A DNA stretch of 32,203 bases, taken from the NCBI GenBank assembly GCA_030065735.1, contig JASJDD010000024.1:1-32203 (forward strand), read 5' to 3'. Within the stretch, counting starts at the first letter, position 1. The number at the start of each line of letters is the position of its first letter. Both the position numbers and the translations under genes were made by a program. The stretch is from Crocosphaera sp. GTDB lineage: Bacteria; Cyanobacteriota; Cyanobacteriia; Cyanobacteriales; Microcystaceae. This document shows positions 18,458-32,066 of this stretch, piece by piece. The notes beneath the pieces are model-generated. The model saw only the letters and a list, made by a program, of their open reading frames with translations, had not been told where the DNA came from and ran no database searches.

Positions 18458-18466
18458 TCAATGCTA
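18425..18466 (+). repeat. direct repeat copy A: tnpB-leader-like sequence forming the end of glgA
   Basis: It matches 18815-18856 at 38 of 42 positions, exactly 390 bases apart. It contains the last ten glgA codons and its TAA. In the second copy the same sequence is the leader and start codon of tnpB; here the AGGA-like ribosome site is altered to ACGA and no tnpB follows. Confidence 0.9.
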
Positions 18467-18467
18467 T

Positions 18468-18579
18468 CCCTCTTCTGTCAGACTCCGAAAAATGGGGATC
18501 AAACCCTGATTCTCTCGTTAAGTGTCGTTGGCTGTAATGACGGAAATTCGTCAGAATTTCGGAAAGTGACAGAAGAGGG
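18468..18579. mobile_element. 112-bp palindromic MITE-like element with 13-bp terminal inverted repeats
   Basis: The ends CCCTCTTCTGTCA (18468-18480) and TGACAGAAGAGGG (18567-18579) are perfect inverted repeats. Inside them CCGAAA (18485-18490) pairs with TTTCGG (18557-18562), and a small hairpin TGACG/CGTCA lies at 18538-18553. No protein is encoded. Its right edge stops three bases short of the last recognisable codon of an antisense tnpB fragment, so it appears to have inserted into that pseudogene. A target-site duplication is not clear. It could also act as a glgA 3' stem-loop. Confidence 0.6.
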
Positions 18580-18581
18580 TT

Positions 18582-18671
18582 ATGTAGAAAGTCTTGACGG
18601 GCATTGCTAATACGTTCGTGAACTCTAGCTACTAGCTTTCGTGCTTTTTCTCTAGATTTACCTAAAATATT
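18582..18671 (-). pseudogene. tnpB fragment (antisense to the surrounding genes)
   Basis: Reading leftward from 18671, thirty codons give NILGKSREKARKLVARVHER then ISNARQDFLH. This is the helical segment seen in TnpB/OrfB proteins before the central RuvC motif (typically KxxVARxHxxIxNxRxDFLHKL). After DFLH the match stops and the sequence runs into the 112-bp palindromic element; before NILG it runs into another hairpin. No other parts of a transposase accompany it, so it is a dead remnant. It is not part of the nearby intact tnpB, which is on the other strand and has a different sequence there. Confidence 0.65.
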
Positions 18672-18759
18672 GCGAGAATGCCCCCGCTATAGGTAAGGGG
18701 GAAACATCGAAGGCGTAGCCAAGTACCCCCGAACCCTTAGCGGTGGGATGAATCGCAAT
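18669..18759. repeat. 91-bp imperfect palindrome upstream of tnpB
   Basis: ATTGCGA (18669-18675) pairs with TCGCAAT (18753-18759); CCCCCGCTA (18681-18689) pairs with TAGCGGTGGG (18738-18747); within it CCCCC and GGGGG (18681-18701) can form an alternative stem. It borders the antisense tnpB fragment and precedes the leader of the intact tnpB. It may be an IS605-type end or a small palindromic insertion. No T-run marks it as a terminator. Confidence 0.5.
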
Positions 18760-18814
18760 CAGAAAATAAACTGCGAAGCAACGATTTTAATTCTAGCAAA
18801 TTTGGGTAAACTGT

Positions 18815-18856
18815 GTTAAAGTATATTTATCCAAGGTCGAGGATAAATCAATGCTA
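18815..18856 (+). repeat. direct repeat copy B: leader, ribosome site and start codon of tnpB
   Basis: The partner of the repeat at 18425-18466 (38 of 42 identical). It includes TGTTAAAGTATATT, which may serve as the -10 region, the ribosome-binding sequence GAGGA eight bases before the ATG, and the first two tnpB codons. Confidence 0.88.
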
Positions 18857-20134
18857 GTGGTAGAAGCCAAATTAAAAAACGGAACACCAGAGCAATACCA
18901 AAAACTAGATGAAGCCATTAGGACATCTCAGTTTGTGCGTAATTCCTGCGTCCGTTATTGGATGGATAATAAGGGGACAACTCGTAATGATCTCCAAAAA
19001 CTTTGCTCTACATTAGCTAAAAATAAAGACACACCTTGGGTAACTTTATTAAACTCTCAAGCCCGTCAATCCTCGGCTGATAGGGCATGGCAGTCAATTA
19101 ATAGATTTTATCAAAATTGTCGTGCTAAGATACCAGGGAAGAAAGGCTTTCCTAAGTTTAAAAAGTATAGTCGTTCTGTGGAGTATAAACTAACAGGATA
19201 CAAGCTATCTGATGACAGACGTAAAATTAAATTCACCGATGGATTTAAAGCAGGAGAATTTGATTTATGGTGTAGTCAAAGAACGTTAGTTTATTATTCA
19301 GAGCAACAAATTAGACGGGTAAGAGTTGTGAAACGTTGTGATGGTTATTATTGCCAGTTTCTTGTTGATGTAGAAAGGCAGGAACACCATGAACCGACGG
19401 GACAAGTAACAGGAATTGATCTGGGGTTAAAAGAGTTCTATACCGATGCTCAGGGCAATACTGTTGATAATCCACGGTATTTGAGAAAGTCAGAAAAGCG
19501 TCTTAAAAAAGCGCAAAGACGATTATCAAAACGCTTTCGCCAAGGGAAGAAACAGTCCAATAACTATCACAAGCAACGGGTCAAAGTAGCCAAGCTTCAC
19601 CTAAAAGTATCAAGACAACGTAAGGACAAAGCAATTAAAGATGCTTTGGCGTTAGTCCAGTCTAACGACTGCATCGTCTATGAGGCTTTAAAGGTTAGAA
19701 ACTTGGTTAAAAATCGTAACCTGTCCAAGTCAATTAGTGATGCCTCTTGGTATCAATTCACCCAATGGTTGAATTATTTTGCTAAGATTTATCGCATCGT
19801 TTGTGTTGCTGTGCCTCCTCATTTCACCACTCAAAACTGTTCAGTTTGTGGCACAAGAGTTCAAAAATCATTAAGTACCAGAACTCATCAATGTCCTAAC
19901 TGTAAAACAGTCTTAGATAGGGATCATAACGCAGCAATAAATGTGCTTAAGAAAGGGTTGCAATATTTGGGAGAACATCTCAACGGTACTGTAGGGCATA
20001 TAGGAACCGACCCAAACGCCTTGGGAGAGTCCGATCTCTGGGTTCTTAATGGCAACATTGAGAATTTAAGCCGTCTCGTTGAGCAAGGAATTTCTAGTAG
20101 TGATACGGAAAGAATCCCCCACTATATTGCGTAG
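18851..20134 (+). CDS. tnpB: TnpB-type RNA-guided nuclease of an IS200/IS605-family element (intact)
   Basis: TnpB proteins cut DNA using a guide RNA made from the end of their own element and help the element persist; they are relatives of Cas12. This copy of 427 residues has a Lys/Arg-rich N-terminal part (with KKGFPKFKKY), then a split RuvC domain with Asp190 in TGIDLGLKEF, Glu278 in IVYEALKV and Asp358 in LDRDHNAAINVL. Between the last two lies a zinc ribbon, CSVCG (Cys330, Cys333) and CPNC (Cys348, Cys351). All key residues are present, so it should be functional. No tnpA is beside it, so it belongs to the tnpB-only (IS1341-like) type. A good GAGGA ribosome site precedes the ATG. The C-terminal 50 residues are variable, as usual, and run into the right-end hairpin. 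Confidence 0.93.
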   Translation: MLVVEAKLKNGTPEQYQKLDEAIRTSQFVRNSCVRYWMDNKGTTRNDLQKLCSTLAKNKDTPWVTLLNSQARQSSADRAWQSINRFYQNCRAKIPGKKGFPKFKKYSRSVEYKLTGYKLSDDRRKIKFTDGFKAGEFDLWCSQRTLVYYSEQQIRRVRVVKRCDGYYCQFLVDVERQEHHEPTGQVTGIDLGLKEFYTDAQGNTVDNPRYLRKSEKRLKKAQRRLSKRFRQGKKQSNNYHKQRVKVAKLHLKVSRQRKDKAIKDALALVQSNDCIVYEALKVRNLVKNRNLSKSISDASWYQFTQWLNYFAKIYRIVCVAVPPHFTTQNCSVCGTRVQKSLSTRTHQCPNCKTVLDRDHNAAINVLKKGLQYLGEHLNGTVGHIGTDPNALGESDLWVLNGNIENLSRLVEQGISSSDTERIPHYIA

Positions 20135-20169
20135 CAAGTGCGAAGCAATTAGTGGCGGGAGTATGTCAA
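20116..20169 (+). ncRNA. predicted right-end hairpin / omega-RNA 3' end of the first tnpB element
   Basis: Overlapping the tnpB stop, CCC + CCACTA (20116-20124) pairs with TAGTGG + GGG (20150-20159, one bulged C), with inner pairing ATTGC/GCAAT (20126-20130 with 20145-20149). GGGAGTATGTCAA closes it at 20169. In IS605-type elements the guide RNA runs from the 3' part of tnpB through such a hairpin, and the bases beyond the terminal TCAA act as guide; by that model the guide begins at 20170. The 5' limit of the RNA is unknown. The call rests on family analogy plus the repeated ending in this window. Confidence 0.5.
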
Positions 20170-20212
20170 GAGCTAATGTAAGGAAAATGGTATTAACGGG
20201 GGAGTATGTCAA
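20157..20212 (+). repeat. duplicated right-end motif GGGAGTATGTCAA
   Basis: The 13-base motif occurs at 20157-20169, directly after the right-end hairpin, and again at 20200-20212, 43 bases on. The second copy lacks a hairpin of its own. Its final TCA is, on the other strand, the TGA stop of the dehydrogenase gene. Two nested insertions or a tandem duplication of the end would explain it. Confidence 0.85.
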
Positions 20213-21201
20213 TTAACAAAGTGAGGCATCACTTCAGCAGCAGTAAATAAACCATGAATACCACGACGATGTAAGGATAACCCTGCTTTGAGATAACCAA
20301 ATGCTGGTCCGCAAACATTGGCTGCCATACTGGTTTCATCCCCTAAAGTAAAAGTATGAGTCGATATTTTTCCCTCAAACGTACGGCCTGTAATCTGGAC
20401 ATTTGTACTTAATGGCTTTTTCGGGTTGCGGGTATCCACCACACCGCCAACGGTAACGCGATCGCGAGAACAAATACCAGCTAACTCTAACATGATATCG
20501 TCAGCGTGTTCCATATTTTCTAGGGTCAGGATACCATTGGTTTGATCCAGAAAGGCTTCCACTTCAGCATCACTCATAGCTTTTGCTTTATCCACATCAA
20601 ACCCTGGTAAATGAGCAATATCCTCTCTTATGGTAGCGCGATAAGCCTCCCAGTTAGCAATACCAACCCCAAAGGTAATTTTAACACGATGAATCTCATG
20701 ATAACTTTGAGCAGCAACGGCCGCAGAAGCGGTCAAAAGGCCAGGGGTTGCACCACAACCCGTCATATAAGTAATGCCGGCAGTTTGTAAGTCCCCTTGT
20801 AATGGTAGCAGTTGTTCGACGGCACTGGTGCGTTTGAGGGCATCCACTAACACCCCTTTCCACCCCGAAGCGATAAACTGTCTAGCGACATCTGCCATAA
20901 AGGTGTTAGGAAGGTTAGGAAGGGCCAAAAAATAGCCATCTACCTTGGCTGTTGCTAGGAGGTCTTTGATACTATGATTGCTAAGGGTTCCGTAGGGGTC
21001 TAAATAACCGATTGATCCCTGTTGACCATAAGTAGCGATCGCTGTTTGGGCATCTAATCCCTTTTTGCAATAAGCATAACCTTTGAGGTCGGCTGCTGCA
21101 ACCCAGAGCATTTCTTGTTTTGGGGCGAGAACTTTGGTAGCTGCTTGTCCGAGTCCCCCGAAGCCTAATATACCAACTTTCATGGTCTGATGACTACTCA
21201 T
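20209..21201 (-). CDS. saccharopine dehydrogenase-like NAD(P)-binding oxidoreductase
   Basis: A 330-residue protein with an N-terminal Rossmann fold: [18 protein letters not shown] supplies the GxGGxG dinucleotide-binding loop. The middle has [21 protein letters not shown], a conserved Gly-rich stretch of saccharopine-dehydrogenase/homoserine-dehydrogenase-like proteins, and a C-terminal substrate-binding half follows ([21 protein letters not shown]). Cyanobacterial genomes carry this protein under the name saccharopine dehydrogenase-like; its real substrate is unknown to me and lysine degradation is not implied. The ATG at 21201 is used; a second ATG six codons in ([10 protein letters not shown]) is equally possible. 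The stop codon lies inside a mobile-element end, so the last few residues may not be original. Confidence 0.8.
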
Positions 21202-21662
21202 TCTTGAATATCTCTTGTAACTGGTTCTGCTTCATGAAACCTACGCAAACCTAGACAGGTTCACCGTTCAATTCCTGCTTCAGCCAAGGGAGACGGCTCT
21301 TTCTTGTCCACAGGCCTTTACCGATAAGCCATCGGCATTTTCCAACAAATTTTTGTTGTTTTTGGAGAAATATAAAGGGTGTCTAGAACTTACTTATAGA
21401 TTTTTCCTTTATACTTTCTCTAGCTTGGTTTTCGCTTCTTTGAGAAAAGATGAATCGACTAAGTCTCCTTTACGATCTTCGCCATTCTAGCACTTAATTT
21501 TAAGGTAAGTCAATGATTGAGTGATGAAGATGTAAACATAATTTCTAGGCATTATGTCAAGATTTGTCAATGTTTGTACAGGTTTTTGTCTTCTAGAAAA
21601 AGCTCTTTTCCTATTATGGGAGGTTGTGGTCACAAAAAATATGAATTTTCATCAATCAATCA
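21202..21662. other. 460-bp non-coding region with a hairpin-rich, GC-richer block (candidate structured RNA)
   Basis: No protein-like frame is visible. The part next to the dehydrogenase (about 21230-21360) is GC-richer than its surroundings and carries a run of short stems: AACCT/AGGTT (21248-21252 with 21257-21261), AGCC/GGCT (21282-21285 with 21295-21298), CCGAT/ATCGG (21321-21325 with 21331-21335) and CAACAAA/TTTGTTG (21343-21349 with 21352-21358). On the - strand this would be the 5' leader of the dehydrogenase mRNA, so a riboswitch, attenuator or small RNA is possible. I could not match it to a riboswitch class I know. The AT-rich remainder (21400-21662) shows nothing distinct. Confidence 0.35.
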
Positions 21663-22952
21663 TTAATCACCACCATGATAATATAACCAATCTTGAATTT
21701 CTTTAGCTAACCAAGCACATTCTTCTTCTTTGAGATTTTCCCCGATAATGTAACTTCTGTTTTTAATTCTAAGTTTCACTTGATGGTTATTAGAACTACC
21801 ATACAGGAAAACCCCAATAATTTCATCATTTGAAGCATTGATAGACTGATAAGTTAATCCAAAAATAGTTCGTTTAATTCTAAAAGATTTTTCTAAAAAC
21901 ACAACCCTCATATCCTGAAAATATTGATAAACAAAGAGTAAAATTAAAAGAGAAAATGGAAAAAATGCCAAGGTTATAACAGCCAGAATAAAGATTGTTA
22001 TAAATAAGCTAGTATTTCCCATTTTGTAAGTCATCTTAGGGGGTAAATCTAAAGATAGTTTACTATCTGTTTTATTCACCAGAAACCGACTATAATCAGG
22101 TTGAATCAGTTTATTAGTGGAATAATTTGAACTAATTATTAAACGTTTCTTTTGTAAAATTTCTAAAGCTTCTTTTGCCGTTGAAAAGCGCTTTTCTATA
22201 GAAATATTAGTGGCTTTCTCTAACCAAAATATAAAATATTTAGCAATATTAACTTTATCGGAAAACTGAATTTGAGAGTCTTGATGAGGCAAGTCAACTG
22301 GCGATATTCCTGTCAATAAATGAATCAAAGTTGCCCCTAATGCGTAAATATCTGAAGCAGGGACTGCCCTTCCCCAAAATTGTTCTAAGGGAGCGTAGCC
22401 ACTACTACCGACTACTGTAAATGTTACACCAGTAACAGCCCCTTGTGCTTGTACTGCACCAAAATCAATTAAATAAATATGATTATCTTCTCCTAAAATT
22501 AAGTTACTAGGTTTAATATCTCGATGAATAACTAAAGGGTTTAGTTCATGTAAATAAATCAAAATTTCTAAAATTTCTACGGCAATATTATAGGTTTCTT
22601 CTTCGGTAAAAATCTTTCCTCTATCTAGTAATTCTTGTAAGGATGAGCCAGGTATATAATCTTGTACTAAACCAAACCAAGCAATTCCTCCTCCTAAGTC
22701 TTTATCTAAGTCAAAATAGTCCCGATAGTTAGGAATTCTATTATGTTTAAGAGACTGCAAAACTTCCGCTTCTCTTTCAAATAATTTTAACTCTTCCCAT
22801 TGCATTTGGGGACTAAATGCTAAGAGTTTTAGGGTAACAGTTTCCTCGGTTAGCTTATCTATGGCTAACCAGGTTTGATGCCCAGTTGCTGTCTGTCCTA
22901 ATCTTTCTTTGAGTTGGTATTTATCAGCAAGAATATCATCAGTATTAAACAT
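21663..22952 (-). CDS. membrane-anchored Hanks-type Ser/Thr protein kinase (downstream paralogue)
   Basis: A protein of 429 residues. The kinase domain (about 12-275) has Lys42 in VTLKLL, the paired helix-C Glu59, catalytic HRDIKPSN (Asp145, Asn150), DFG at 163-165 and an activation segment ending in SGYAPLEQFWG. The Gly-rich loop is degenerate (LGQTATG), as in many cyanobacterial kinases of this group. Two adjacent hydrophobic stretches at about 315-350 anchor it in the membrane. A short conserved C-terminal domain follows (about 355-429), ending EEECAWLAKEIQDWL, possibly a bacterial PH-like fold. It starts 13 bases after its upstream paralogue, so the pair is likely one operon and a tandem duplication. 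Targets are unknown. Confidence 0.9.
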   Translation of the reverse strand: MFNTDDILADKYQLKERLGQTATGHQTWLAIDKLTEETVTLKLLAFSPQMQWEELKLFEREAEVLQSLKHNRIPNYRDYFDLDKDLGGGIAWFGLVQDYIPGSSLQELLDRGKIFTEEETYNIAVEILEILIYLHELNPLVIHRDIKPSNLILGEDNHIYLIDFGAVQAQGAVTGVTFTVVGSSGYAPLEQFWGRAVPASDIYALGATLIHLLTGISPVDLPHQDSQIQFSDKVNIAKYFIFWLEKATNISIEKRFSTAKEALEILQKKRLIISSNYSTNKLIQPDYSRFLVNKTDSKLSLDLPPKMTYKMGNTSLFITIFILAVITLAFFPFSLLILLFVYQYFQDMRVVFLEKSFRIKRTIFGLTYQSINASNDEIIGVFLYGSSNNHQVKLRIKNRSYIIGENLKEEECAWLAKEIQDWLYYHGGD

Positions 22953-22965
22953 AATATCTTTAATC

Positions 22966-24468
22966 TTAATTTAACCAATCTTCAATTTCTTTTGCTAACC
23001 AAAGGGCTTCTTGTTCCGTTAGTTTATTGCCTAATTGATAAATCATTTTTCTAGTATTAATAGTAACATTATATCTATGGAGTAATTTATGAATAAAAAT
23101 ACCAAGAATGTTATTTTTTGATTCTTGTTCTTCATTATACTCAAATCCTAAGATTTTTTCTTGTATTTTTAATGTTTCTTTATCTAACACTAAACAAGTT
23201 TTTGAACCCGTGATACTAATTATATACAGAAATAATACTAGAAAAATAATCATAAAACTTATACCTCCCATAATTTCCAGAGATGCCATAATAAATGAAG
23301 GATCTTGCAACATAATTCCAGTAACAATCAAAGAAAATGGAATAAAGAATAGTCCAGAAACTGTCATTAGAGGAATAACGTTGCTAAGGTTTAAGTTTTG
23401 ATTAATTAAATGAGTTTCAAGTTTTAATATTTTTTTGATTAATCTCAATTGAGATGATGGAATAACAACTTGTAGAGATTTATCTGTTTTATTTAATTTT
23501 ATTTTTGTTTTCAATTGATTTTTTTGATTCGATTTAACTAGACTATTTTTTTTTCTATTTTTCTGGGCTATTTCTCCTGTTTTCAAAGCTTTTAATGCGT
23601 CTCTTGCTGTTTGATAACGCTGAGATATATAAATTTCAGTTAAGGTTGTTAACCAAGACTTAAAAGCAGGATTAATCTTCCCTTCATCTTCAAACTCAAT
23701 TTGATAATCTTGATTATGTAAATCCGTTGGAGAAATACCTGTTAAAAGATGAATTAATGTTGCTCCCAAGGCATATAAATCAGAGGAAAAAACCGCTTTA
23801 CCCCAAAATTGTTCTAAGGGAGTATAACCACTGGTTCCTACCACAGTAAAACTAATATTAGTCACCGAATTTTGATCTTGAACTGCACCAAAATCAACCA
23901 AGTAGATGTTGTTATCTTCCCCCAAAATTAAATTACTGGGTTTAATATCTCGATGTAATACGGGAGGATTTAATTCATGTAAATAAATTAAAATCTTGAG
24001 AACTTTTATGGCAATTTTACGAATTTCACCCTCAGAAAATCTTTTCCCTTGTTCTAATAAATCCTCTAAGGATTCCCCTGGAATATAATCTTCTACTAAA
24101 CCAAACCAAGAAACGCCATTTCTCACCTTTTCAGATATTTCAAAATAGTTTCGGTAACAGGGAATAAAAGGATGATCTAACCCTTGTAAAACTTTAGCTT
24201 CTCGTTCAAATAGTTTAAATTGTTCCCAAGATAGTTGAGGATTAAATGCTAATAATTTAACTGTTACTTTTTCGTAAACTTTAGGCCGAAATAACTGCTC
24301 AAAGTTGTAAAACCATTTTAACCAAGGTAATTGTTTTTTTGAGTCAGCATATAAATCAATGGGAGAAAATAAATCATCGGCTAACCAAGTTTGATGACCA
24401 ATAGCCGTTTTTCCCAAAGATTTTAGGAGTTGATAACGTTGAAAGAGAATATCTCCAACCTGAAACAT
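22966..24468 (-). CDS. membrane-anchored Hanks-type Ser/Thr protein kinase (upstream paralogue, with insert)
   Basis: A 500-residue paralogue of the following kinase, with the same opening (VGDILFQRYQLLKSLGKTAIGHQTWLADD) and the same C-terminal domain ending EQEALWLAKEIEDWL. Catalytic residues are intact: Lys71 in VTVKLL, HRDIKPSN with Asp174, DFG at 192-194 and SGYTPLEQFWG. It differs by an insert of about 30 residues (about 36-66, Trp/Lys/Phe-rich) between the nucleotide loop and the beta-3 lysine, and by a Lys-rich linker (about 305-350) before two hydrophobic segments at about 368-425. It is first in the two-gene unit, and a good promoter lies 24 bases upstream of its ATG. Substrates and signals are not visible. 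Confidence 0.9.
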   Translation of the reverse strand: MFQVGDILFQRYQLLKSLGKTAIGHQTWLADDLFSPIDLYADSKKQLPWLKWFYNFEQLFRPKVYEKVTVKLLAFNPQLSWEQFKLFEREAKVLQGLDHPFIPCYRNYFEISEKVRNGVSWFGLVEDYIPGESLEDLLEQGKRFSEGEIRKIAIKVLKILIYLHELNPPVLHRDIKPSNLILGEDNNIYLVDFGAVQDQNSVTNISFTVVGTSGYTPLEQFWGKAVFSSDLYALGATLIHLLTGISPTDLHNQDYQIEFEDEGKINPAFKSWLTTLTEIYISQRYQTARDALKALKTGEIAQKNRKKNSLVKSNQKNQLKTKIKLNKTDKSLQVVIPSSQLRLIKKILKLETHLINQNLNLSNVIPLMTVSGLFFIPFSLIVTGIMLQDPSFIMASLEIMGGISFMIIFLVLFLYIISITGSKTCLVLDKETLKIQEKILGFEYNEEQESKNNILGIFIHKLLHRYNVTINTRKMIYQLGNKLTEQEALWLAKEIEDWLN

Positions 24469-24491
24469 GACATTGATAATTATTTGATATG

Positions 24492-24521
24492 ATTATAGTA
24501 GCATGGTGAAAGTAGAATCAA
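24492..24521 (-). promoter_or_regulatory. sigma-70-type promoter of the kinase pair
   Basis: Reading leftward, TTGATT (24521-24516) is followed 18 bases later by a consensus TATAAT (24497-24492). Transcription would start near 24485, giving a leader of under 20 bases before the kinase ATG at 24468. Hexamers and spacing are close to consensus; activity is inferred. Confidence 0.6.
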
Positions 24522-24588
24522 AGTTTACAGAATAGCACGGGCATCGCAAAGCTCCCATCTTTCAAGTGGGAGATGTAGCGCAACACTA

Positions 24589-24633
24589 GGTGCGCTTTCC
24601 AATGGCGAGGGAACCTCGCCTTGGGTTGCACCT
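24589..24633 (+). repeat. 45-bp palindromic repeat, copy 1 (tnpB leader)
   Basis: The sequence folds on itself: GGTGCG pairs with TGCACC (one wobble) and GGCGAGG with CCTCGCC around a GAA loop. It matches 25902-25946, inside the tnpB gene, at 40 of 45 positions, with three of the five differences in the loop. Confidence 0.9.
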
Positions 24634-24667
24634 CTAATTTATTGCCTGTGACTATTCTTAATAAGTG

Positions 24668-24695
24668 TTGCTATGTTTATTAAGTGTGCTATAAT
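24668..24695 (+). promoter_or_regulatory. promoter of the second tnpB, possibly giving a leaderless mRNA
   Basis: TTGCTA (24668-24673), a 16-base spacer and a perfect TATAAT (24690-24695) with an upstream TG form an extended -10 promoter. The expected start of transcription falls at or within a base or two of the ATG at 24702, so the message may have almost no leader. Confidence 0.6.
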
Positions 24696-24701
24696 GGGGA
24701 A

Positions 24702-26009
24702 ATGATAACGATGACCTACGACTATAAACTCAAGCCTAAAAAGTCTCAAGTCCAGATGATTGAGATGTATCTTGAGACGTGCAGAAAAGTTTATAATTAC
24801 GCACTTCGAGAGAGAAAAGATTGGGTTAATAGCAGAAAATCGCCTATCAATGCTTGTTCAATTCATTCTGAGTATATAATCAATCCAGATACCCCTAGAC
24901 CTACCTATAACTCTCAGTGTAAGACTTTAACAGAAGCGAAAAAGACCTATCCTGAATTAAAAAAACCTCATTCTCAAGTCCTACAACAGACATTGAGAAT
25001 TTTAGAGGCTGCATTCGTAAATATGTGGCAAAGAGGCTTCGGTTTTCCACGCTTTAAAAAAAAGATGCGGAGTTTTCTTTACCCATCAGTTAAACAAGAA
25101 TGGGTAGGAAATGGATGGGTTTTTCTTCCTAAAATTGGGAAAGTTAATATGAGGATGTCTCGCCCTATTCCTGATGGGTTTCTCTTAAAACAAATCAGAG
25201 TAGTTAAAAGAGCGTCAGGGTATTTTGTCCAGTTAATTTATCAGTTAGCTGTCAATGTTCCTGAGACTCCCATACAAGGATATCCATTAGGGGTAGATAT
25301 CGGACTTGATTCTTATCTAGCTACTAGCGAGGGAGAATTAGTCAAAAGACCTCGGTTTTTTAAGCAACTTCATGGCCAGTTGAAATCACTGCAAAGAAGG
25401 TTAAGAAACAAGAAAAAGGGGTCTAATAATTGGCAGAAACTTCAAACTAAAATAGCTAGAATCTATCAAAAAATCCACGACACTAGAAAAGATTGGCATT
25501 TTAAATTAGCTCATCATTTATGTGACCAAGCTGGTATGATATTTGTTGAAGATATTAACTTCAAAGCTTGGGCTAAAGGAATGTTTGGCCAACATACTTT
25601 AGATGCCGGTTTTGCTCAGTTTTTTAACATCTTGGCTTATATTTGCTGGAAGAGAGATGTCTATTTTCTTAAAGTAGATAAAGATTATACCAGTCAAATT
25701 TGCCCTAATTGTAATACTCAAACAGGCAAAAAGAATCTATCTGATAGAGTTCATAATTGTCCTCATTGTGGGTATCAAACAAATCGTGATGTGGCAGCCA
25801 GTCAGGTGATTAGAAATCGAGGTCTGATCCACCTGGAATCTCATTCCAGGTGGAAAGCAGACCTCAAAGGATTAGTAGCGGTCGGACAGCCCGTGAATCA
25901 AGGTGCGCTTTCCAATGGCGAGGTTTCCTCGCCTTGGATCGCACCTCAAAATGCTTTCGGAGACGTTCTATCGGGGTCAATTTCTGATTGGCTAGATAAG
26001 TGTCTATGA
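24702..26009 (+). CDS. tnpB: TnpB-type RNA-guided nuclease (intact, C-terminus built from palindromic DNA)
   Basis: A TnpB of 435 residues, unrelated in detail to the other tnpB here. N-terminal helix-turn-helix-like part (YKLKPKKSQVQMIEMYLETC); RuvC Asp199 in LGVDIGLDSY; Glu283 in IFVEDINFKAW; zinc ribbon CPNC (Cys334, Cys337) and CPHC (Cys353, Cys356); final Asp363 in TNRDVAASQVI. All catalytic residues are kept. After about residue 373 the sequence leaves the family and is encoded by two large palindromes (25821-25863 and 25902-25946). Starts: ATG at 24702 (used) or 24711; an upstream in-frame GTG at 24684 lies before the promoter's start site and is unlikely. RNA-guided cutting at sites with the element's target motif is family knowledge. 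Confidence 0.92.
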   Translation: MITMTYDYKLKPKKSQVQMIEMYLETCRKVYNYALRERKDWVNSRKSPINACSIHSEYIINPDTPRPTYNSQCKTLTEAKKTYPELKKPHSQVLQQTLRILEAAFVNMWQRGFGFPRFKKKMRSFLYPSVKQEWVGNGWVFLPKIGKVNMRMSRPIPDGFLLKQIRVVKRASGYFVQLIYQLAVNVPETPIQGYPLGVDIGLDSYLATSEGELVKRPRFFKQLHGQLKSLQRRLRNKKKGSNNWQKLQTKIARIYQKIHDTRKDWHFKLAHHLCDQAGMIFVEDINFKAWAKGMFGQHTLDAGFAQFFNILAYICWKRDVYFLKVDKDYTSQICPNCNTQTGKKNLSDRVHNCPHCGYQTNRDVAASQVIRNRGLIHLESHSRWKADLKGLVAVGQPVNQGALSNGEVSSPWIAPQNAFGDVLSGSISDWLDKCL

Positions 26010-26056
26010 GGAAAGAATCTCCTGATTTTAGCGTAGCGGAATCAGGAGAGTGTCAA
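25821..26056 (+). ncRNA. predicted omega-RNA scaffold overlapping the tnpB 3' end
   Basis: Three strong hairpins lie in a row: GGTCTG-CCACCTGGAA/TTCCAGGTGG-CAGACC (25821-25863), the 45-bp palindrome (25902-25946) and the right-end hairpin CTCCTGATT/AATCAGGAG (26019-26027 with 26040-26048), then AGTGTCAA to 26056. Guide RNAs of TnpB elements are known to overlap the tnpB 3' end and continue into the flank; by that model the guide starts at 26057. The 5' boundary is a guess. Confidence 0.45.
25902..25946 (+). repeat. 45-bp palindromic repeat, copy 2 (inside tnpB)
   Basis: A perfect version of the leader palindrome: GGTGCG/CGCACC and GGCGAGG/CCTCGCC around TTT. It is translated as part of the TnpB tail (GALSNGEVSSPWIAP), so the repeat inserted, or evolved, without breaking the frame. 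Confidence 0.9.
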
Positions 26057-26290
26057 ATCGAGTTAGAGTGAATGCTTGGCCGAAATCGGCATAATATTGA
26101 GTAAAGGCAACTGCTACGAAGCAGAAACCTAAATCGTGAGGTTTGGGAATCACTGCCGTAAAAACGAAAAAAGCCTCAATTAAGAGGCTTTACTCTATGA
26201 TTTTTTCAGTACATTCCCTTATCATAGATATTAACTAATTGGCCTTCTCCCGTTTACAAAACGGGAGATTTATAACCCATCCCCATGGGG
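26057..26290. repeat. hairpin-rich IS605-type debris downstream of the second tnpB
   Basis: No protein is visible. It contains CTGCT/AGCAG (about 26113-26127), AACCT/AGGTT (about 26128-26145) followed by TTTGGGAATCAC, which looks like another element end, a perfect 10-bp stem TCTCCCGTTT/AAACGGGAGA (26246-26255 with 26259-26268), and the palindrome CCCCATGGGG (26281-26290). The stem followed by GGGAGAT resembles the left-end hairpin of the adjacent element, so parts of one or two more IS605-type elements may be here. The terminator at 26161-26191 interrupts it. Confidence 0.4.
26161..26191 (-). terminator. Rho-independent terminator (leftward)
   Basis: AAAGCCTC (26170-26177) and GAGGCTTT (26184-26191) form an 8-bp stem with a 6-base loop. 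Reading leftward it is followed by TTTTTTCGTTTT, a good T-run; rightward the run is only three Ts. It would end transcripts of the small gene at 26324-26743, about 130 bases beyond its stop. Confidence 0.7.
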
Positions 26291-26323
26291 ATAGTTATTT
26301 TATTGAATAAGGGAAATGAAGAA

Positions 26324-26743
26324 TTAGGATTTGTCGAGTTTAGAGGTACTGCGGAAGCCTTCAACGGATCTCATCGAAACGACAAATTCAGGAAGAAGGT
26401 TAAGGTAAACGTCGCTAGTCTCAGTGCCAGTAGCACCGTCAATACGTTCTCGAACAGTCCACCAATAGGATTTTTGTGAGGAACTAGCTCCAGGTGCAAG
26501 GTCACCAAAAGAAAGAAGTACTTCACCACTATCAATAACCGTGCCACCAGAATTACAAAGCTCAGCATCAAACAGGATAGAAGTGTCATCAAGATCCACA
26601 TAAATCTTGACATCTTTTAAAGGAACATTTCCACCATTAGTTACTTTAACCTTAGAAACAATGTAAGTTCCGTTAGAACCAACAACAGTATGAGACCAAA
26701 AACTTTGTTCAATTCTCAGGTTAACGTTAAAAATTGCTATCAT
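26324..26743 (-). CDS. small beta-sandwich (CARDB/DUF11-like) hypothetical protein
   Basis: A 139-residue protein without signal peptide or membrane helix. The pattern GTYIVSKVKVTNGGNVPLKD, then VKIYVDLDDTSILFDAELCN and LLSFGDLAPGASSSQ resembles the immunoglobulin-like beta-sandwich of CARDB/DUF11 repeats (a conserved TNxGNxPLxDVxI core and a LAPGxSxS loop), which are usually part of larger surface proteins; here one stands alone. The final 20 residues are polar and basic. There is no Shine-Dalgarno sequence before the ATG. It sits between mobile-element debris and sigE; transcription probably ends at the leftward hairpin at 26161-26191. Function unknown. Confidence 0.65.
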   Translation of the reverse strand: MIAIFNVNLRIEQSFWSHTVVGSNGTYIVSKVKVTNGGNVPLKDVKIYVDLDDTSILFDAELCNSGGTVIDSGEVLLSFGDLAPGASSSQKSYWWTVRERIDGATGTETSDVYLNLLPEFVVSMRSVEGFRSTSKLDKS

Positions 26744-26900
26744 TCATTTTTTAAAAATAAGTTTAAAAAAGTTTAAAATTTGGTTAAAAAAATATAGATA
26801 ATTAAAATAAGTAATCGGACATAGATAAAGTCCTCAAGAAAAATGAGCAAAAATATGTTATTCTAAATTTAGAAAAAATGACAATTAAATGCGATAAATT

Positions 26901-26948
26901 AAAAAAATAGGTATGAGGGGTGAGTTTTCCTGTCTCACCTCATACCTA
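26901..26948 (-). terminator. Rho-independent terminator of sigE
   Basis: Reading leftward from 26948, TAGGTATGAGG-TGAG pairs with CTCA-CCTCATACCTA (11 + 4 bp, two bulged bases, 9-base loop), directly followed by TTTTTTTAATTT. It begins 12 bases past the sigE stop. Stem, spacing and T-run are all convincing. Confidence 0.88.
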
Positions 26949-26959
26949 AATCATTGCTT

Positions 26960-28081
26960 TCAATGAAGCCATCCTTTTAGACGACGGGCCACTTGAGGTC
27001 GACGTAACTTGCGCATCGCTTTACTTTGAATCTGACGAACTCTTTCACGGGAAAGGTTAAAAATGCCTCCTACTTCTTCTAAGGTATGAGGTTGAGAGGT
27101 ACATAACCCATAGCGTAAAGAAATGACATCCTTTTCTCTTTGGGTTAAAACATCACTTAACACCGCAGAAACTTCATAGCGCAACATTCCTTCGTTCATC
27201 AATTCTTCAGGGAGTTGTAAGTCTTGATCTTCCAGCAAATCAACTAACTCGGTGTCTTCTCCCTTCCCAACCCGATGATTTAAAGACAAGGACTGTCTCC
27301 GTAGTTGCAATAACTGACGCAGTTGAGAAGGCGTTACTTCTAATTCGTCAGCTAGTTCCTTTTCATTGGGATTGCGCTGTAATTTTTGTTTTAGAACCCG
27401 TTGAGCTTTTTTGAGTTTGTTTAATTTTTCCACAACGTGGATAGGTAAACGAATGGTTCTCGCATCATTGGCAATGGTACGAGTAATGGCTTGACGAATC
27501 CACCAATAAGCATAGGTTGAGAATTTATAGCCCTTATTGGGATCAAATTTTTCGGATGCGCGATTGAGGCCAATCGCCCCTTCTTGAATTAAATCCAGGA
27601 AAGGAACACCACGATTAAGATAACGTTTCGCAATGGATACGACTAAGCGTAAATTAGAACGAATCATTTTCCGTTTCGCTGTCCGTCCCCGATGCAAACG
27701 ATGTTCAAATTGTTTTTGATTGTTAAAGGCCATGGCTTTGGCCCATTCTGCTTTGGTAAGAGGACGTTGTAATTTTTCTTGTAGCTGTTGTCTGGTTTCT
27801 TCTGCTTCGACTAAAAATTGAACATGATGGGCTAATTGGACCTCCTCTTCTGCGTTTAAAAGGGGATAGCGAGACATTTCTTTAAAAAATGCCCCAACCG
27901 TATCATCAGAAACCGTTTTACGATATCCCTCTGGATATTGATTACCTAGATCATCAGACAAAGAGGAAAGCTCTACTTCAACAGATTGCAATTCGTTTTC
28001 TGTTTGTTCAAGGTCCACTGCTTCAAGAGAGGGATTAAATTCATTAGTTGATTCCGTTTGCATCATTTGTGTCGTGTTCAT
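26960..28081 (-). CDS. sigE: group 2 RNA polymerase sigma-70 factor, SigE type
   Basis: A group 2 sigma factor of 373 residues. The acidic N-terminus (1-50) precedes region 1.2 with TVSDDTVGAFFKEMSRYPLL (about 56-75), the SigE hallmark in place of the usual DLVRxYLxEIGR. Region 2 (SNLRLVVSIAKRYLNRGVPF to YAYWWIRQAITRTIANDAR) lies at about 142-208, region 3 at about 210-285, and region 4.2 with LSRERVRQIQSKAMRKLRRP at about 343-362. In Synechocystis, SigE activates sugar catabolism and glycogen breakdown and is induced under nitrogen limitation by NtcA (family knowledge); I looked upstream for GTA-N8-TAC and found none. A strong terminator ends the gene, which is transcribed alone. Confidence 0.85.
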   Translation of the reverse strand: MNTTQMMQTESTNEFNPSLEAVDLEQTENELQSVEVELSSLSDDLGNQYPEGYRKTVSDDTVGAFFKEMSRYPLLNAEEEVQLAHHVQFLVEAEETRQQLQEKLQRPLTKAEWAKAMAFNNQKQFEHRLHRGRTAKRKMIRSNLRLVVSIAKRYLNRGVPFLDLIQEGAIGLNRASEKFDPNKGYKFSTYAYWWIRQAITRTIANDARTIRLPIHVVEKLNKLKKAQRVLKQKLQRNPNEKELADELEVTPSQLRQLLQLRRQSLSLNHRVGKGEDTELVDLLEDQDLQLPEELMNEGMLRYEVSAVLSDVLTQREKDVISLRYGLCTSQPHTLEEVGGIFNLSRERVRQIQSKAMRKLRRPQVARRLKGWLH

Positions 28082-28882
28082 AAGCTGATAATTCCGAGGA
28101 GTAAAACCGGTTTAATAAGTTCGGGAACAATAGGAGAGGAGACGAGGTCAGCTATGTCAGAAATCAGGGATGATTTGGTGTCAGTTGAACTTAAAAATTT
28201 TTAAGATTATCTTAATAATTTTTCAAGGTCTTTATAGGATACCAATCAATAACCAAACAACGGAAAAAAGCTCAATAAAGGGCAAAACTTAACCTTGGTA
28301 TTTAATTAGCGCGACTATCGCCTCCAGCCTTAACCAATCAGGGTTTGAGAAGACTGGCTGTTTATCAGGCTACCAGAATTTTTGGGATGTTTTGTCTATC
28401 TAATTACAAAAAAACCAATTGATAAATCAAAAAAGGAGTTTCTGAGGCTAAACTATAGAATATTTTTAACATTTGATTGTCTCCTTCACACTAGGAATGA
28501 TTTTTTCTCTTGCTATTCACTAACTTATCTGATTTAGGGGGAATTTTTCATCCTTTTTAAGATAAAGTTTTGTTAAGAAATAATTTCAGATAACTTAATA
28601 AAGAAAATCAAAAAAAAACAACCGTTGCATATGCTTATACTGTAACCTATTTCAACACAATTTGTGTAGGGAATCGTCATGATTCTTGATTCTCAACATC
28701 AACATAGGGCCTAAATAAACACCTTATCCCTTATAGTTTTTTTATACTATAGCTAATATTTGTTATGATAGTAAGCTGTTTTAGGTTAACTCACTAACTA
28801 ATTCGTTCAAGAGTAACCTAACCCTGTAGCTGGCCACTTTCATTCTTACTAATTTAATGGAAGCACCATTAAACTTAAAATT
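28082..28882. promoter_or_regulatory. 800-bp AT-rich divergent gap between sigE and the glycoside hydrolase
   Basis: No coding frame longer than a few tens of codons is visible; one ATG at 28679 starts an 11-residue peptide without obvious meaning. For sigE, a weak promoter may be TTGAAA (28226-28221, leftward) with an A-rich -10. For the hydrolase, TATGAT at 28764-28769 could be a -10 box, about 115 bases before the start codon, without a clear -35. The size suggests regulation of one or both genes or a small RNA, but I see no known riboswitch, NtcA site or strong terminator. Confidence 0.3.
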
Positions 28883-30169
28883 ATGAAACAAAACTTGTTT
28901 GATAAAAGTGCTAATGCACTGGTTAGATTGAGTCGTCGTTGGGGTCGTCAAAGTTGGCTCATTTTTCTTGTTTTCTTTGGCATCTATTTAGCATTAATTC
29001 CCTTTACTCTTCCTTTTTCTGCACAGTCTCGTAATCAACCAGCAGAAATCAGAGGAGTCTGGTTAACCAATATTGATAGTGAAGTTTTATTTGATTCTAA
29101 AACTCTAACCGAAGGCATCAATACGCTTGCTCAACTCAACTTTAATACCTTATATCCTACGGTTTGGAATTGGGGTTATACCTTATATCCTTCTGCAATT
29201 GCTCAATCAGTCGTCGGTAAAAAGTTAGACCCGACAGAAGGTTTGCAAGGTCGAGATATTCTTAAAGAAATTGTTGACCAAGGTCATGATCAAGGAATGT
29301 CTGTAATTCCTTGGTTTGAATTTGGATTTATGGCACCGGCTGACTCGGAATTAGCGAAACGTCATCAAGACTGGTTAACTAAACGACAAGATAATAGTAC
29401 CGTTTGGTTAGAAGGAAATATTCATGAAAGAGTCTGGTTAAGTCCTTTTAATCCTGAAGTTCAAAAATTTTTAACTGATTTATTGGTTGAAATTGTTACT
29501 AATTACAACATTGATGGCATTCAAGTCGATGATCATTTCGGTATTCCCTTTGACTTTGGTTACGATGATTTTACCATTCAACTCTATCAACAAGAACATA
29601 ACGGAAAAATGCCTCCAAAAACCCCTAGTTATCTAAAAATGGGACGTAATAATTGTATAGCAAATAATGCGGCTTGGACAGAATGGACAGAATGGAGAGC
29701 AACAAAAATTACTGAATATATGGGAGAAGTTTTTGCAGCAGTTAAAGCCGTTAAACCTAACATTATTGTTTCTGTTTCTCCTAATCCTCAAACCTTCTCA
29801 AAAAATTGCTTTCTCTTAGATTGGCAAAGTTGGGAAAGAAAGGGATTGATAGAAGAATTGGTCTTACAAGTCTATCGCTCTAAGATGGTGGATTTTCAAC
29901 GAGAAATTAATCAACCTGAAGTCAAACAAGCTAAAGCACATATTCCTTTTGCTGTCGGGGTTTTGTCGGGTTTAAAAGGTCGACCTGTTCCTATGCAACG
30001 CATCAATGACCAAGTAAGAGAAACCCGTAATCAAAGGTTTGCTGGTGTTTCTTTCTTTTTCTATGAAAGTCTCTGGAACTTTGGACCGAAATCACCTAAA
30101 GAACGTCAATTTAGATTTAAGCAAATGTTTCCAACCACTGTTAGTCGTCCTTTGATGAATCCCCAGTAA
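28883..30169 (+). CDS. GHL10/DUF187-type family 10 glycoside hydrolase-like protein
   Basis: An exported or membrane-anchored hydrolase-like protein of 428 residues. A hydrophobic signal segment is at about 24-44, ending SAQS. The GHL10 (TIM-barrel) domain starts with EIRGVWLTNIDSEVLF and contains LNFNTLYPTVWNWG, GHDQGMSVIPWFEFGF, the long WLSPFNPEVQKFL loop and NIDGIQVDDHFGIP, whose Asp residues (211, 216, 217) are likely in the active site, and it closes with VSFFFYESLW. In bacteria such proteins are thought to cleave envelope or extracellular polysaccharide (e.g. peptidoglycan-like glycans); the substrate is not proven. It stands alone behind an 800-bp gap with sigE divergent. Family call firm, activity inferred. 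Confidence 0.87.
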   Translation: MKQNLFDKSANALVRLSRRWGRQSWLIFLVFFGIYLALIPFTLPFSAQSRNQPAEIRGVWLTNIDSEVLFDSKTLTEGINTLAQLNFNTLYPTVWNWGYTLYPSAIAQSVVGKKLDPTEGLQGRDILKEIVDQGHDQGMSVIPWFEFGFMAPADSELAKRHQDWLTKRQDNSTVWLEGNIHERVWLSPFNPEVQKFLTDLLVEIVTNYNIDGIQVDDHFGIPFDFGYDDFTIQLYQQEHNGKMPPKTPSYLKMGRNNCIANNAAWTEWTEWRATKITEYMGEVFAAVKAVKPNIIVSVSPNPQTFSKNCFLLDWQSWERKGLIEELVLQVYRSKMVDFQREINQPEVKQAKAHIPFAVGVLSGLKGRPVPMQRINDQVRETRNQRFAGVSFFFYESLWNFGPKSPKERQFRFKQMFPTTVSRPLMNPQ

Positions 30170-30178
30170 ACTCTTAAT

Positions 30179-30416
30179 ACTGAACTTACCCATAGAAAAA
30201 TCGCTGAAAGCCTTACCCAGAGGTAGTTATAGCAATTTTTTAACGACCCGTTACTGGGTACAATTCACTCTGAAGCTTAACTGGAGCGTGTTTTGAGCGA
30301 TCGCAGCCATAGAGCAACCCCTTACATGGACACAGAACCTAAGTACTACTTGCTTTATTCCCTTTAAAATAAGGCTTTCAGCGATTTTAAGATCAAACGT
30401 ACGGGGGAAGTTCAGT
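30179..30416. mobile_element. 238-bp MITE-like element with long terminal inverted repeats
   Basis: Outer ends ACTGAACTT (30179-30187) and AAGTTCAGT (30408-30416) are perfect inverted repeats. Inside them AAAATCGCTGAAAGCCTTA (30197-30215) and its exact complement (30370-30388) form a further 19-bp pair. Spacers between outer and inner repeats differ (9 and 19 bases). The core has a nested pair ACCCAG/CTGGGT and one HIP1-type GCGATCGC, but no protein frame. This is the form of a non-autonomous derivative of a DNA transposon; the family is unknown to me and a target duplication is not clear. It lies just after the glycoside hydrolase stop. Confidence 0.75.
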
Positions 30417-30539
30417 TATACTCGAATTGAAACCCCCAACGGGAGGAAAAACAATCCTATCTTACGGGAGCTTTATGACTGGATGAAACAAGACAAGTTT
30501 AATGGTACTCCCATTAAGTTACTGAGAAGGAAAGTAATT
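30417..30539. other. 123-bp spacer before the panC-cmk end, with a coding-like frame
   Basis: One + strand frame reads RIETPNGRKNNPILRELYDW then MKQDKFNGTPIKLLRRK without stops from the end of the MITE into the panC-cmk 3' region. It looks protein-like but has no start or recognised family; it may be a decayed gene end. Nothing else is visible. Confidence 0.25.
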
Positions 30540-32066
30540 CTAATTGTTCAACTTAACGAGATGGATAATTTTCTTCACTACTTCTTCAATAGTTAATCCA
30601 TCAGTATTGAGTTCGACCGCATCGCTGGCCTGACGCAGAGGGGCTAAGGTTCGATGACTATCAAGATAGTCTCTTTGTTCAATATCCTGTTCCAGCTGTT
30701 GAAGATTAATATTGTCCTCTCCTTGAGCCTGAAAATCCACCAACCGTCGTCTTGCTCGTTCTTGGACTGAGGCTGTCAAGAAAATTTTAACATCGGCATC
30801 GGGAAAAACGTTAGTGCCAATATCCCGCCCTTCAGCTACAATACCGCCTAATTTCCCTAATTCCTGTTGATAAGCGACTAATTTCTGGCGAACGGCACCA
30901 TAAGCAGAAATGGGAGAGACTAAAGCCGTCACTTGGGGGGTACGAATGGCTTGAGTCACATTTTCCCCGTTAATGATGATTTGAGGGGGTTGCTCATCAC
31001 GGGAGGGAAGGAATTCTAAGGTCGCTTGGGAGACTAATTCTGCGATCGCACTTTTGTCTTCTACAGGTATTCCTGAGTCTAATACTAACCAGGCGATGCC
31101 CCGATACATAGCCCCTGTGTCCAAATAGGTTAACTTTAAGGCTTTAGCCACTTCACGGGTAACGGTAGATTTCCCGGCACCGGCAGGTCCATCGATGGCA
31201 ATAATGGGTTTTCGTATTCTTAAGCTAATATTATCAATCAGTCGGGTTGACCCTACATAAGCAGCGATGGCTAATAACCCTGCTACTTCAATAGTATCTA
31301 AGGGTTGCAAGGTTTGAGCATGGACACATTCAATATATTGAACGGTTATGGCAGAATGAGGGGCTAATTGGTCTTTGACACAATTAATTAAGACTTGAGT
31401 TTGCCTTTCTCCAACGAGAAAAGCTTGTTTTGCTGCTTGTAACCCTTGATATAAAGCGATCGCTTCTTTTTTTTGCGCCTCTGTTAGATATTGATTGCGA
31501 GAGCTATAAGCTAGTCCTGAGGGTTCCCGAATAATGGGACAGCCTTTAATAACAACCGATAAGTGTAAATCTTTAACTAGCTGACGAATAATGGCCAGTT
31601 GTTGGGCATCTTTTTCCCCAAAATAAGCCATATGGGGGCTGACAATGTTAAACAGTTTCGTGACAATGGTGGCTACCCCTTGAAAATGACCTGGTCGAAA
31701 TGGGCCACATAGGTAGGAGAGCATCTGGGGAGGAGGAAAGACTTGAGTGGTTTTTTTAGAAGTGCTATTAATATCCATTTCTTCTGGGGTTGGGGCAAAT
31801 ATAGCAGCCACTCCCAGATTTTCGCACAGTTGAGCGTCTGTTTCTAGTTGACGAGGATACTTCGCTAAATCTTCCTCTGGGCCAAATTGGAGGGGGTTAA
31901 CAAAAATGCTCACCACCACCACATCAACCTCAGACATAGCACGACCTATTAGACTGATATGACCTTTATGTAAGGCTCCCATGGTGGGGACTAACCCGAT
32001 AGTTTGGTTGTCCCCCACAGAAGCTAAGTAGGTGCGTAACCCGGCCACCGTTTTAAACAGACGCAT
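30540..32066 (-). CDS. panC/cmk: bifunctional pantoate--beta-alanine ligase / cytidylate kinase (PanC-Cmk)
   Basis: A 508-residue fusion, the usual form in cyanobacteria. Residues 1-280 are PanC, which makes pantothenate from pantoate, beta-alanine and ATP: TMGALHKGHISLI holds the HxGH nucleotide site (His33, His36), VNPLQFGPEEDLAKYPR the pantoate site, and the SSRNQYL loop (about 188-194) the KMSKS-like motif. Residues about 288-508 are Cmk, which phosphorylates CMP and dCMP: Walker A GPAGAGKST (293-301), then LDTGAMYRGIAW and EGRDIGTNVFPDADVKIFL. Both halves look complete. GGAGA stands about nine bases before the ATG at 32066. It thus supplies CoA and pyrimidine nucleotides; no operon partner is visible in the window. 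Confidence 0.96.
   Translation of the reverse strand: MRLFKTVAGLRTYLASVGDNQTIGLVPTMGALHKGHISLIGRAMSEVDVVVVSIFVNPLQFGPEEDLAKYPRQLETDAQLCENLGVAAIFAPTPEEMDINSTSKKTTQVFPPPQMLSYLCGPFRPGHFQGVATIVTKLFNIVSPHMAYFGEKDAQQLAIIRQLVKDLHLSVVIKGCPIIREPSGLAYSSRNQYLTEAQKKEAIALYQGLQAAKQAFLVGERQTQVLINCVKDQLAPHSAITVQYIECVHAQTLQPLDTIEVAGLLAIAAYVGSTRLIDNISLRIRKPIIAIDGPAGAGKSTVTREVAKALKLTYLDTGAMYRGIAWLVLDSGIPVEDKSAIAELVSQATLEFLPSRDEQPPQIIINGENVTQAIRTPQVTALVSPISAYGAVRQKLVAYQQELGKLGGIVAEGRDIGTNVFPDADVKIFLTASVQERARRRLVDFQAQGEDNINLQQLEQDIEQRDYLDSHRTLAPLRQASDAVELNTDGLTIEEVVKKIIHLVKLNN

What the first reader, a model, noticed from the sequence alone, without database searches (positions are those of the whole stretch)
25821..26056. 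tnpB whose C-terminal tail is encoded by strong palindromes that may be its own guide-RNA scaffold
After the last RuvC Asp, the 3' coding region of the second tnpB contains a 43-bp two-part hairpin and a 45-bp palindrome, then the right-end hairpin. The same DNA appears to encode protein and to fold as an omega-RNA. The hairpin-coded tail is foreign to ordinary TnpB and may be a recent palindrome insertion that kept the frame.
Basis: partly seen in the sequence, partly recalled or inferred. Interest (0 to 1): 0.6.

Follow-up and report, generated by a model that had tools for sequence, protein, structure and literature searches.

The report
Palindromes inserted into TnpB guide-RNA tail
In this cyanobacterial jumping gene, two small hairpin-forming DNA pieces of exactly 48 letters each sit, without breaking the reading frame, in a stretch that seems to encode both the end of a DNA-cutting protein and its guide RNA, and the same kind of insertion recurs in related elements.

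Summary
The palindromes are real and far beyond chance. They sit in a tnpB-only IS200/IS605-type element of a Crocosphaera-group genome (24529-26056; TTAC before the left end, TCAA at the right end). Palindrome-free relatives show that this TnpB's tail is not foreign: its DNA is a right-end guide-RNA scaffold, supported by compensatory changes in 16 palindrome-free relatives. The window carries two extra palindromes, each a net insertion of exactly 48 nt, in frame, outside the scaffold helices. One has a second copy in the left end, and a tnpB-less derivative elsewhere in the genome looks like a recombinant between the two. The pattern recurs: of 16 insertion groups found automatically in coding tnpB tails, 12 have a net length divisible by three (18 of 20 with hand-picked pairs). 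One family (P1) was found at a single tnpB site in two searches; another (P3) lies in seven tnpB lineages and in a pPIWI_RE-island protein, and its arms covary. Yet 6 of 17 P3 tail copies carry an in-frame stop, so frame keeping is not absolute and may be intrinsic. No RNA was measured.

The parts
24525..24528 (+). TTAC preceding the element's left end (insertion site; expected TAM)
   Evidence: TTAC stands at this position in 8 of 9 distinct left ends with the same hairpin; the ninth (L079/L070) lacks it
24552..24572 (+). left-end hairpin CTCCCA..TGGGAG
   Evidence: sequence; same hairpin in Crocosphaera copies
24589..24632 (+). left-end copy of palindrome P2 (44-bp core); net +45 nt against relatives, in non-coding DNA
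24702..26009 (+). tnpB (ATG 24702 likely; the ORF list gives GTG 24684); OrfB_IS605 and Cas12f1-like TNB domains; Asp 205, Glu 289, Asp 369 (numbering of P0001) and four Cys kept
25819..25865 (+). palindrome P1; net insertion 25823-25870 (48 nt, ends ambiguous by a few nt) at the RNRG codons
25878..25895 (+). scaffold stem-loop S1 (GCGGTCGGACAGCCCGTG), encodes AVGQPV
25902..25945 (+). palindrome P2; net insertion 25900-25947 (48 nt; ends ambiguous by a repeated TCAA)
25969..25998 (+). scaffold helix S2 (TATC 25969-25972 with GATA 25995-25998; relatives TGTC/GACA, TGGC/GCCA, TGAC/GTTA) enclosing helix S3
26019..26048 (+). right-end hairpin, after the stop codon
26053..26056 (+). TCAA, right end of the element; a guide would start at 26057
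   Evidence: flanks of the copies diverge after TCAA; the guide is an inference

Best explanation
A tnpB-only IS200/IS605-type element whose 3' tnpB tail doubles as the DNA of its right-end guide-RNA (omegaRNA/reRNA) scaffold carries two small palindromic insertions. Each adds exactly 48 nt, so it adds 16 residues to a tail that is mostly predicted disordered and, in ISDra2, is dispensable, and at the same time one self-contained hairpin outside the conserved RNA helices. In this copy both products stay usable on paper: the frame is open, and S1, S2 and S3 remain. The palindromes are therefore passengers on the scaffold, not the scaffold. The P2 copy in the left end and the one in the tail appear to have recombined elsewhere in the genome to give a tnpB-less derivative. 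Shown: the net insertions and their lengths, scaffold covariation, recurrence, the mosaic derivative. Inferred: that an RNA is made, that it guides TnpB, that the tail is dispensable here, and how the palindromes move.
For: Flank-matched palindrome-free relatives give net +48 and +48 (L141 for both, L082 for P2, L047 for P1); further palindrome-free tails are L062/L075, L089 and L080. Scaffold: 16 palindrome-free relatives, 89.6% of cells paired, covariation score 0.290 against shuffle mean 0.137, 0 of 500 shuffles as high, slid controls 25-42% paired. Across classes, 36 of the 65 sequences in which a crude pattern matched form all five S1 pairs round a GGGC(A/T) loop, with ten different stems. 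In S2 the window has TATC/GATA where several relatives have TGTC/GACA. The window's TnpB keeps RuvC and zinc residues. AlphaFold model: mean pLDDT 85.2, last 42 residues under 50. In ISDra2 the omegaRNA overlaps the tnpB 3' end, and residues 376-408 are disordered and not required for cleavage (PMC10097598 passages). Recurrence. Mosaic derivative.
Against: No RNA evidence and no Rfam match. S1 alone is not significantly stable in the window (z -0.4); its three counted pairs never vary in the 16 relatives; the window's class forms 4 of the 5 wider pairs, and in 12 of the 65 sequences the pattern found 3 pairs or fewer. S2' is poorly kept (79% of cells). The segment 25949-26013 holding S2 and S3 is not exceptional by energy (z -1.4). 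Frame keeping may be built in or weak: the non-coding left-end copy of P2 is also net +45; short indels in coding tails are not clearly biased (17 of 39 against 6 of 24 after the stop, Fisher p 0.18); 6 of 17 P3 copies in tnpB tails have an in-frame stop inside the palindrome (L307, L308, L309, L320, L325, L332); of 10 P1 copies in tnpB tails one has a stop inside (L164) and one is out of frame (L161); L015 and L297 are out of frame and L100 has a stop inside its insert.
Confidence: 0.83

Rival explanations
1. The palindromes are functional parts of this element's guide RNA: P1 and P2 form extra scaffold arms bound or needed by this TnpB.
For: Both are stable hairpins that fold apart from the conserved helices. 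P3-family arms covary over 16 copies (6 pairs with changes on both sides, 0 of 500 shuffles), so those hairpins are kept as hairpins. P1 was found only at one tnpB site in the two searches made.
Against: Palindrome-free relatives have similar TnpB (L062 92%, L089 77%, L080 72% identical to the window protein). P2 lies outside tnpB tails in all 8 copies read from other genomes. Covariation of P3 would also follow if a DNA hairpin is needed for its mobility. P1 and P2 themselves were too few for a covariation test.
Confidence: 0.12
2. The palindromes are spread by homologous recombination or gene conversion among tnpB tails rather than by transposition; each family entered tnpB once.
For: P1 sits at the same site in different TnpBs. 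The C179 derivative is a mosaic of the two P2 copies.
Against: Sequence just beyond P1 differs between hosts. P3 lies at different sites in different lineages and in a non-tnpB protein. P2 is at unrelated places in other genomes.
Confidence: 0.25
3. The whole thing is a decaying tnpB with neutral hairpin debris: neither tail nor RNA is under selection any more.
For: 1-nt indels are frequent in these tails (20 of 39 short coding-tail indels). Several relatives have in-frame stops in the tail.
Against: An intact 441-codon frame with catalytic and zinc residues, scaffold pairs kept in the window, and large insertions mostly divisible by three (12 of 16 automatic, 18 of 20 with hand-picked pairs).
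Confidence: 0.13

Closest known systems
IS200/IS605-family elements with TnpB and right-end guide RNA (ISDra2, IS608; OMEGA)
   Same: RuvC and zinc-ribbon TnpB, end hairpins, TTAC site as in IS608, RNA region overlapping the tnpB 3' end (PMC8612924 and PMC10097598, passages)
   Different: no tnpA in the element; two palindromes inside the overlap region and one in the left end
Rickettsia palindromic elements (RPE)
   Same: small palindromic elements inserted in frame in genes, several families (PMC10969869, passages)
   Different: about 45-57 nt net for most cases here against about 150 bp; here many lie in tnpB tails that are also RNA regions; no sequence comparison with RPEs was made
Small dispersed repeats of cyanobacteria; REP sequences with their RAYT transposases (both recalled)
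   Same: short, dispersed, hairpin-forming
   Different: comparison from memory only; the earlier work on cyanobacterial small repeats was not read here
MITE-like derivatives of IS200/IS605 (recalled)
   Same: the C179 copy (L028/L032) keeps both ends and no tnpB
   Different: it seems to have arisen by recombination between the two P2 copies

Membership tests
IS200/IS605-type element with TnpB | TnpB with RuvC acidic residues and zinc ribbon | tested here: met
   three Pfam families over cut-off; 8h1j and 8bf8 at E 3.3e-27 and 4.2e-27; first two acidic residues and four Cys invariant, third acidic residue nearly invariant in 47 proteins
IS200/IS605-type element with TnpB | sub-terminal hairpins and a fixed tetranucleotide before the left end | tested here: met
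   TTAC in 8 of 9 distinct left ends, flanks diverge after TCAA. That IS608 uses TTAC: PMC8612924 passage; that its right end is TCAA is recalled
IS200/IS605-type element with TnpB | own Y1 transposase TnpA | tested here: not met
   tnpB is the only ORF of 80 aa or more inside the element; 8 Y1_Tnp matches elsewhere in the genome, 4 near full length. Isolated tnpB is a known configuration (PMC8612924 passage)
OMEGA guide RNA | structured RNA from tnpB 3' end to the right end | tested here: inconclusive
   covariation supports a structured RNA; no transcript data; no Rfam match at E up to 1
OMEGA guide RNA | RNA bound by TnpB and guiding cleavage | not testable with these tools
   needs RNA-seq and nuclease assays
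RPE-like in-frame palindromic element | palindrome inserted in frame in coding sequence | tested here: inconclusive
   met for P1 and P2 in the window and for most net lengths, but 6 of 17 P3 tail copies and 1 of 10 P1 tail copies carry a stop inside the palindrome and 1 of 10 P1 copies is out of frame
RPE-like in-frame palindromic element | found in unrelated genes | tested here: inconclusive
   P3: seven tnpB lineages and one pPIWI_RE-island protein; P1: tnpB only in the searches made; P2: tnpB and non-tnpB sites
RPE-like in-frame palindromic element | sequence relation to Rickettsia RPE families | not tested
   no RPE sequence was fetched

The most novel reading that the evidence does not exclude
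Cyanobacteria hold families of palindromic elements whose preferred niche is the dual-purpose tnpB tail. Their net insertion is a multiple of three and lands between guide-RNA helices, so one insertion can add a peptide and an RNA arm without harm. P1 is site-specific for the border between the nuclease core and the guide-RNA scaffold and may be moved by a Y1 transposase acting on hairpins in single-stranded DNA.
Probability: 0.25. Interest if true: 0.72.

Novelty: new variant of a known kind. Interest (0 to 1): 0.5.

Why it matters
It suggests that a nuclease gene and its overlapping guide-RNA region can be lengthened together, repeatedly, by small palindromes. Nature has thereby run insertion tests on TnpB scaffolds that say where extra RNA arms and extra C-terminal residues are tolerated. 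It raises a testable question: why the frame of a tail that is dispensable for cutting in ISDra2 mostly stays open. It also gives an example of in-frame palindromic insertion outside Rickettsia.

Tried and rejected
Rejected: the palindromes as the scaffold (relatives lack them); the whole tail as foreign; a curated RNA family (no Rfam match at E up to 1 over 17500-31000). Tried without result: structure-aware alignment with mafft-qinsi (no output); a wide exact-pattern search for the window-class S1 (3 of 388 genomes), which showed only that this exact S1 is rare; a claim of selection from short indels, not significant; a plasmid search, which gave 15 records with TnpBs under 60% identical and was not used further. 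Paper searches for palindromes with TnpB or Crocosphaera (listings only) showed no title or abstract start that describes this.

Choices made before counts. From I collapsed the AGGTCTG-stem rows (window, L165/L057, L164, L181, L161, L269, L101, L270) to one group, although L161 (50) and L269 (62) are not multiples of three. I dropped the L101/L269 34-nt row as internal to that group and the L071/L077 27-nt row as an alignment artefact, treated the three L237 rows as one (24), and set aside L147 (49) and L171 (24), which lie after the stop. P2 of the window, L109, L138 and the 51-nt copies of P3a and P3b come from hand-picked pairs and the second insert of L325, so 18 of 20 is less strict than 12 of 16. 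The groups are not fully independent: L109 and L325's second insert share a palindrome, and the 45-nt insert of L093 and its sister copies shares its outer stem with L297. In one search, 76 of 148 genomes had a match; I fetched 100 of the listed places.

Full report
What is there. The ORF 24684-26009 (likely ATG 24702) is a TnpB: OrfB_IS605, Cas12f1-like TNB and HTH_OrfB domains, best natural solved relatives ISDra2-type TnpB 8h1j and 8bf8 at E 3.3e-27 and 4.2e-27, with the RuvC acidic residues and four cysteines kept in a 47-protein alignment. Copies fix the ends: TTAC precedes the left end in 8 of 9 distinct copies and the flanks diverge after TCAA at 26056. tnpB is the only ORF of 80 aa or more in the element; 8 Y1_Tnp matches, 4 of them near full length, lie elsewhere in the genome.

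The observation. P1 (25819-25865) and P2 (core 25902-25945) fold far better than shuffles (z -8.0 and -7.3, 0 of 200 each). P2 has a second copy in the left end (24589-24632). The right-end hairpin (26019-26048) lies after the stop codon.

What the tail is. Close relatives carry the same tail without palindromes. In 16 palindrome-free relatives the helices S1, S2', S2, S3 and one extra pair give 89.6% paired cells and a covariation score of 0.290 (shuffle mean 0.137, 0 of 500 as high; slid controls 25-42% paired); S1's three pairs never vary in that set and S2' is kept in 79% of cells. Over wider classes a crude pattern matched 65 sequences: 36 form all five S1 pairs round a GGGC(A/T) loop, with ten different stems; the window's class forms 4 of 5; 12 have 3 or fewer, mostly stray hits. 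For ISDra2 it is established that the omegaRNA overlaps the tnpB 3' end and that residues 376-408 are disordered and not required for cleavage (PMC10097598, passages). By alignment the core of the window protein ends at residue 382, and its last 42 residues are predicted disordered (pLDDT under 50). P1 therefore sits at the border between nuclease core and scaffold, P2 inside the scaffold between S1 and S2.

Insertion. Against L141 the window shows two large extra pieces before the stop, both 48 nt. RNA folding of 25866-26057 keeps P2, S1, S2/S3 and the right-end hairpin as separate hairpins; P1 too folds alone when the stretch starts at 25819, but with 30 nt more upstream the minimum-energy fold pairs other parts.

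Recurrence. 255 loci (some overlapping) gave a usable tail, 230 tails distinct. The automatic search for insertions of at least 18 nt with at least 78% identical flanks, collapsed as told under Tried and rejected, gives 16 groups in coding tails, 12 with a net length divisible by three (binomial p 8e-4 against one third). With the hand-picked pairs and the second insert of L325, P3 in other tnpB lineages left out, it is 18 of 20 (p 2e-7); with P3 as one event and L325 left out, 16 of 18; counting the other P3 lineages as separate events, 23 of 25. The exceptions are L015 (44) and L297/L181 (46). After-stop insertions were 49 and 24. Where I could place S1, insertions fall before it, just after it or further 3', not clearly within its stem; for L100 the placement is ambiguous. 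This is a reading of positions, not a test.

Families. P1: 5 places in 4 of 9 Crocosphaera-group genomes; with the same outer stem and a different inner hairpin, 6 places in 3 of 148 genomes of the order. In 10 of these 11 it directly follows the codons for Arg-Asn-Arg (Thr-Asn-Arg in L340) of a tnpB; the eleventh (L162) is cut on one side but is followed by a tnpB-tail scaffold. Its loop is inverted in L164 and L162. Of the 10, 8 read through in frame, L164 has a stop inside and L161 is out of frame. P2: 8 places in 3 of 9 Crocosphaera-group genomes, 3 of them in this genome, and 3 more in one genome of the order; none of the 8 copies read from other genomes is in a tnpB tail. P3: 32 places in 8 of 9 Crocosphaera-group genomes, 30 of them given as loci. 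I place 18 in tnpB tails of seven lineages (L316 only by its flanks), 2 P3-like ones inside the N-terminal part of a tnpB, 2 in frame in one protein family that for L311 carries pPIWI_RE_Y and REase domains, 4 in right-end-like sequence without a recognised tnpB, and 4 unplaced. Net length was 51 or 57 in the comparisons made, except 50 and 52 in L065 and L071 and a 45 for L335 against a second reference. Of 17 tail copies with a readable tnpB frame, 11 stay open through the palindrome and 6 meet a stop inside it. Over 16 distinct P3 copies 90.8% of cells pair, and 6 pairs change on both sides (0 of 500 shuffles).

Derivative. In L028/L032 (contig C179) the left end is fused to the right end through one P2. 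Its 5' half has the left-end copy's letters and its 3' half those of the tail copy, so it looks like a recombinant between the two.

Limits. Length in threes may be intrinsic: the non-coding left-end P2 is also net +45, and short indels show no significant frame bias. Stops inside several palindromes show that the frame is not always kept. No RNA was measured. How the palindromes move is unknown. Searches of the paper library (listings, with passages seen only of PMC10097598, PMC8612924, PMC10278001 and PMC10969869) showed no description of palindromes in TnpB tails; the library lacks most subscription papers, and earlier work on cyanobacterial small repeats is recalled, not read.

Verdict. 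The dual-coding idea is right and already known for TnpB. The palindromes are most likely in-frame passengers on the scaffold, part of a recurrent pattern that I did not find described.

Noticed in passing
L028/L032 (own genome, contig C179): A tnpB-less copy of the element, ends kept, joined through one P2; its palindrome is half left-end copy and half tail copy.
   Followed up: yes
L311, L327: Palindrome P3 sits in an open frame in a protein of a pPIWI_RE-type island (domains checked for L311), between the Y and REase domains, beside a CGHCGG motif.
   Followed up: partly
L324, L331: A P3-like palindrome lies in frame inside the N-terminal part of a tnpB, where no guide RNA is expected.
   Followed up: partly
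window 18851-20134: The first tnpB of the window has no P3, but its relatives L308, L312, L318, L320 and L325 carry P3 at the end of the RuvC region (near 19950); in three of these five the palindrome brings an in-frame stop.
   Followed up: partly
P3 loci: In 10 of the 11 open tail copies P3 is read in the same frame (QRGLGG(F/L)PHERL), across several tnpB lineages.
   Followed up: no
L071: Its P3 is a near-perfect inverted repeat, as if one arm had been rewritten from the other; net 52 nt and the frame is lost.
   Followed up: no
window 20155-20212: Two right-end-like ends (GGGAGTATGTCAA) follow one another after the first tnpB.
   Followed up: no
window 26118-26163: A stretch just past the element matches L042 and resembles the right end of another element, so the flank is itself probably mobile-element debris.
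   Followed up: no
genome G498: tnpB relatives with open frames of 482, 548, 562 and 947 codons, far beyond the usual 400-440.
   Followed up: no
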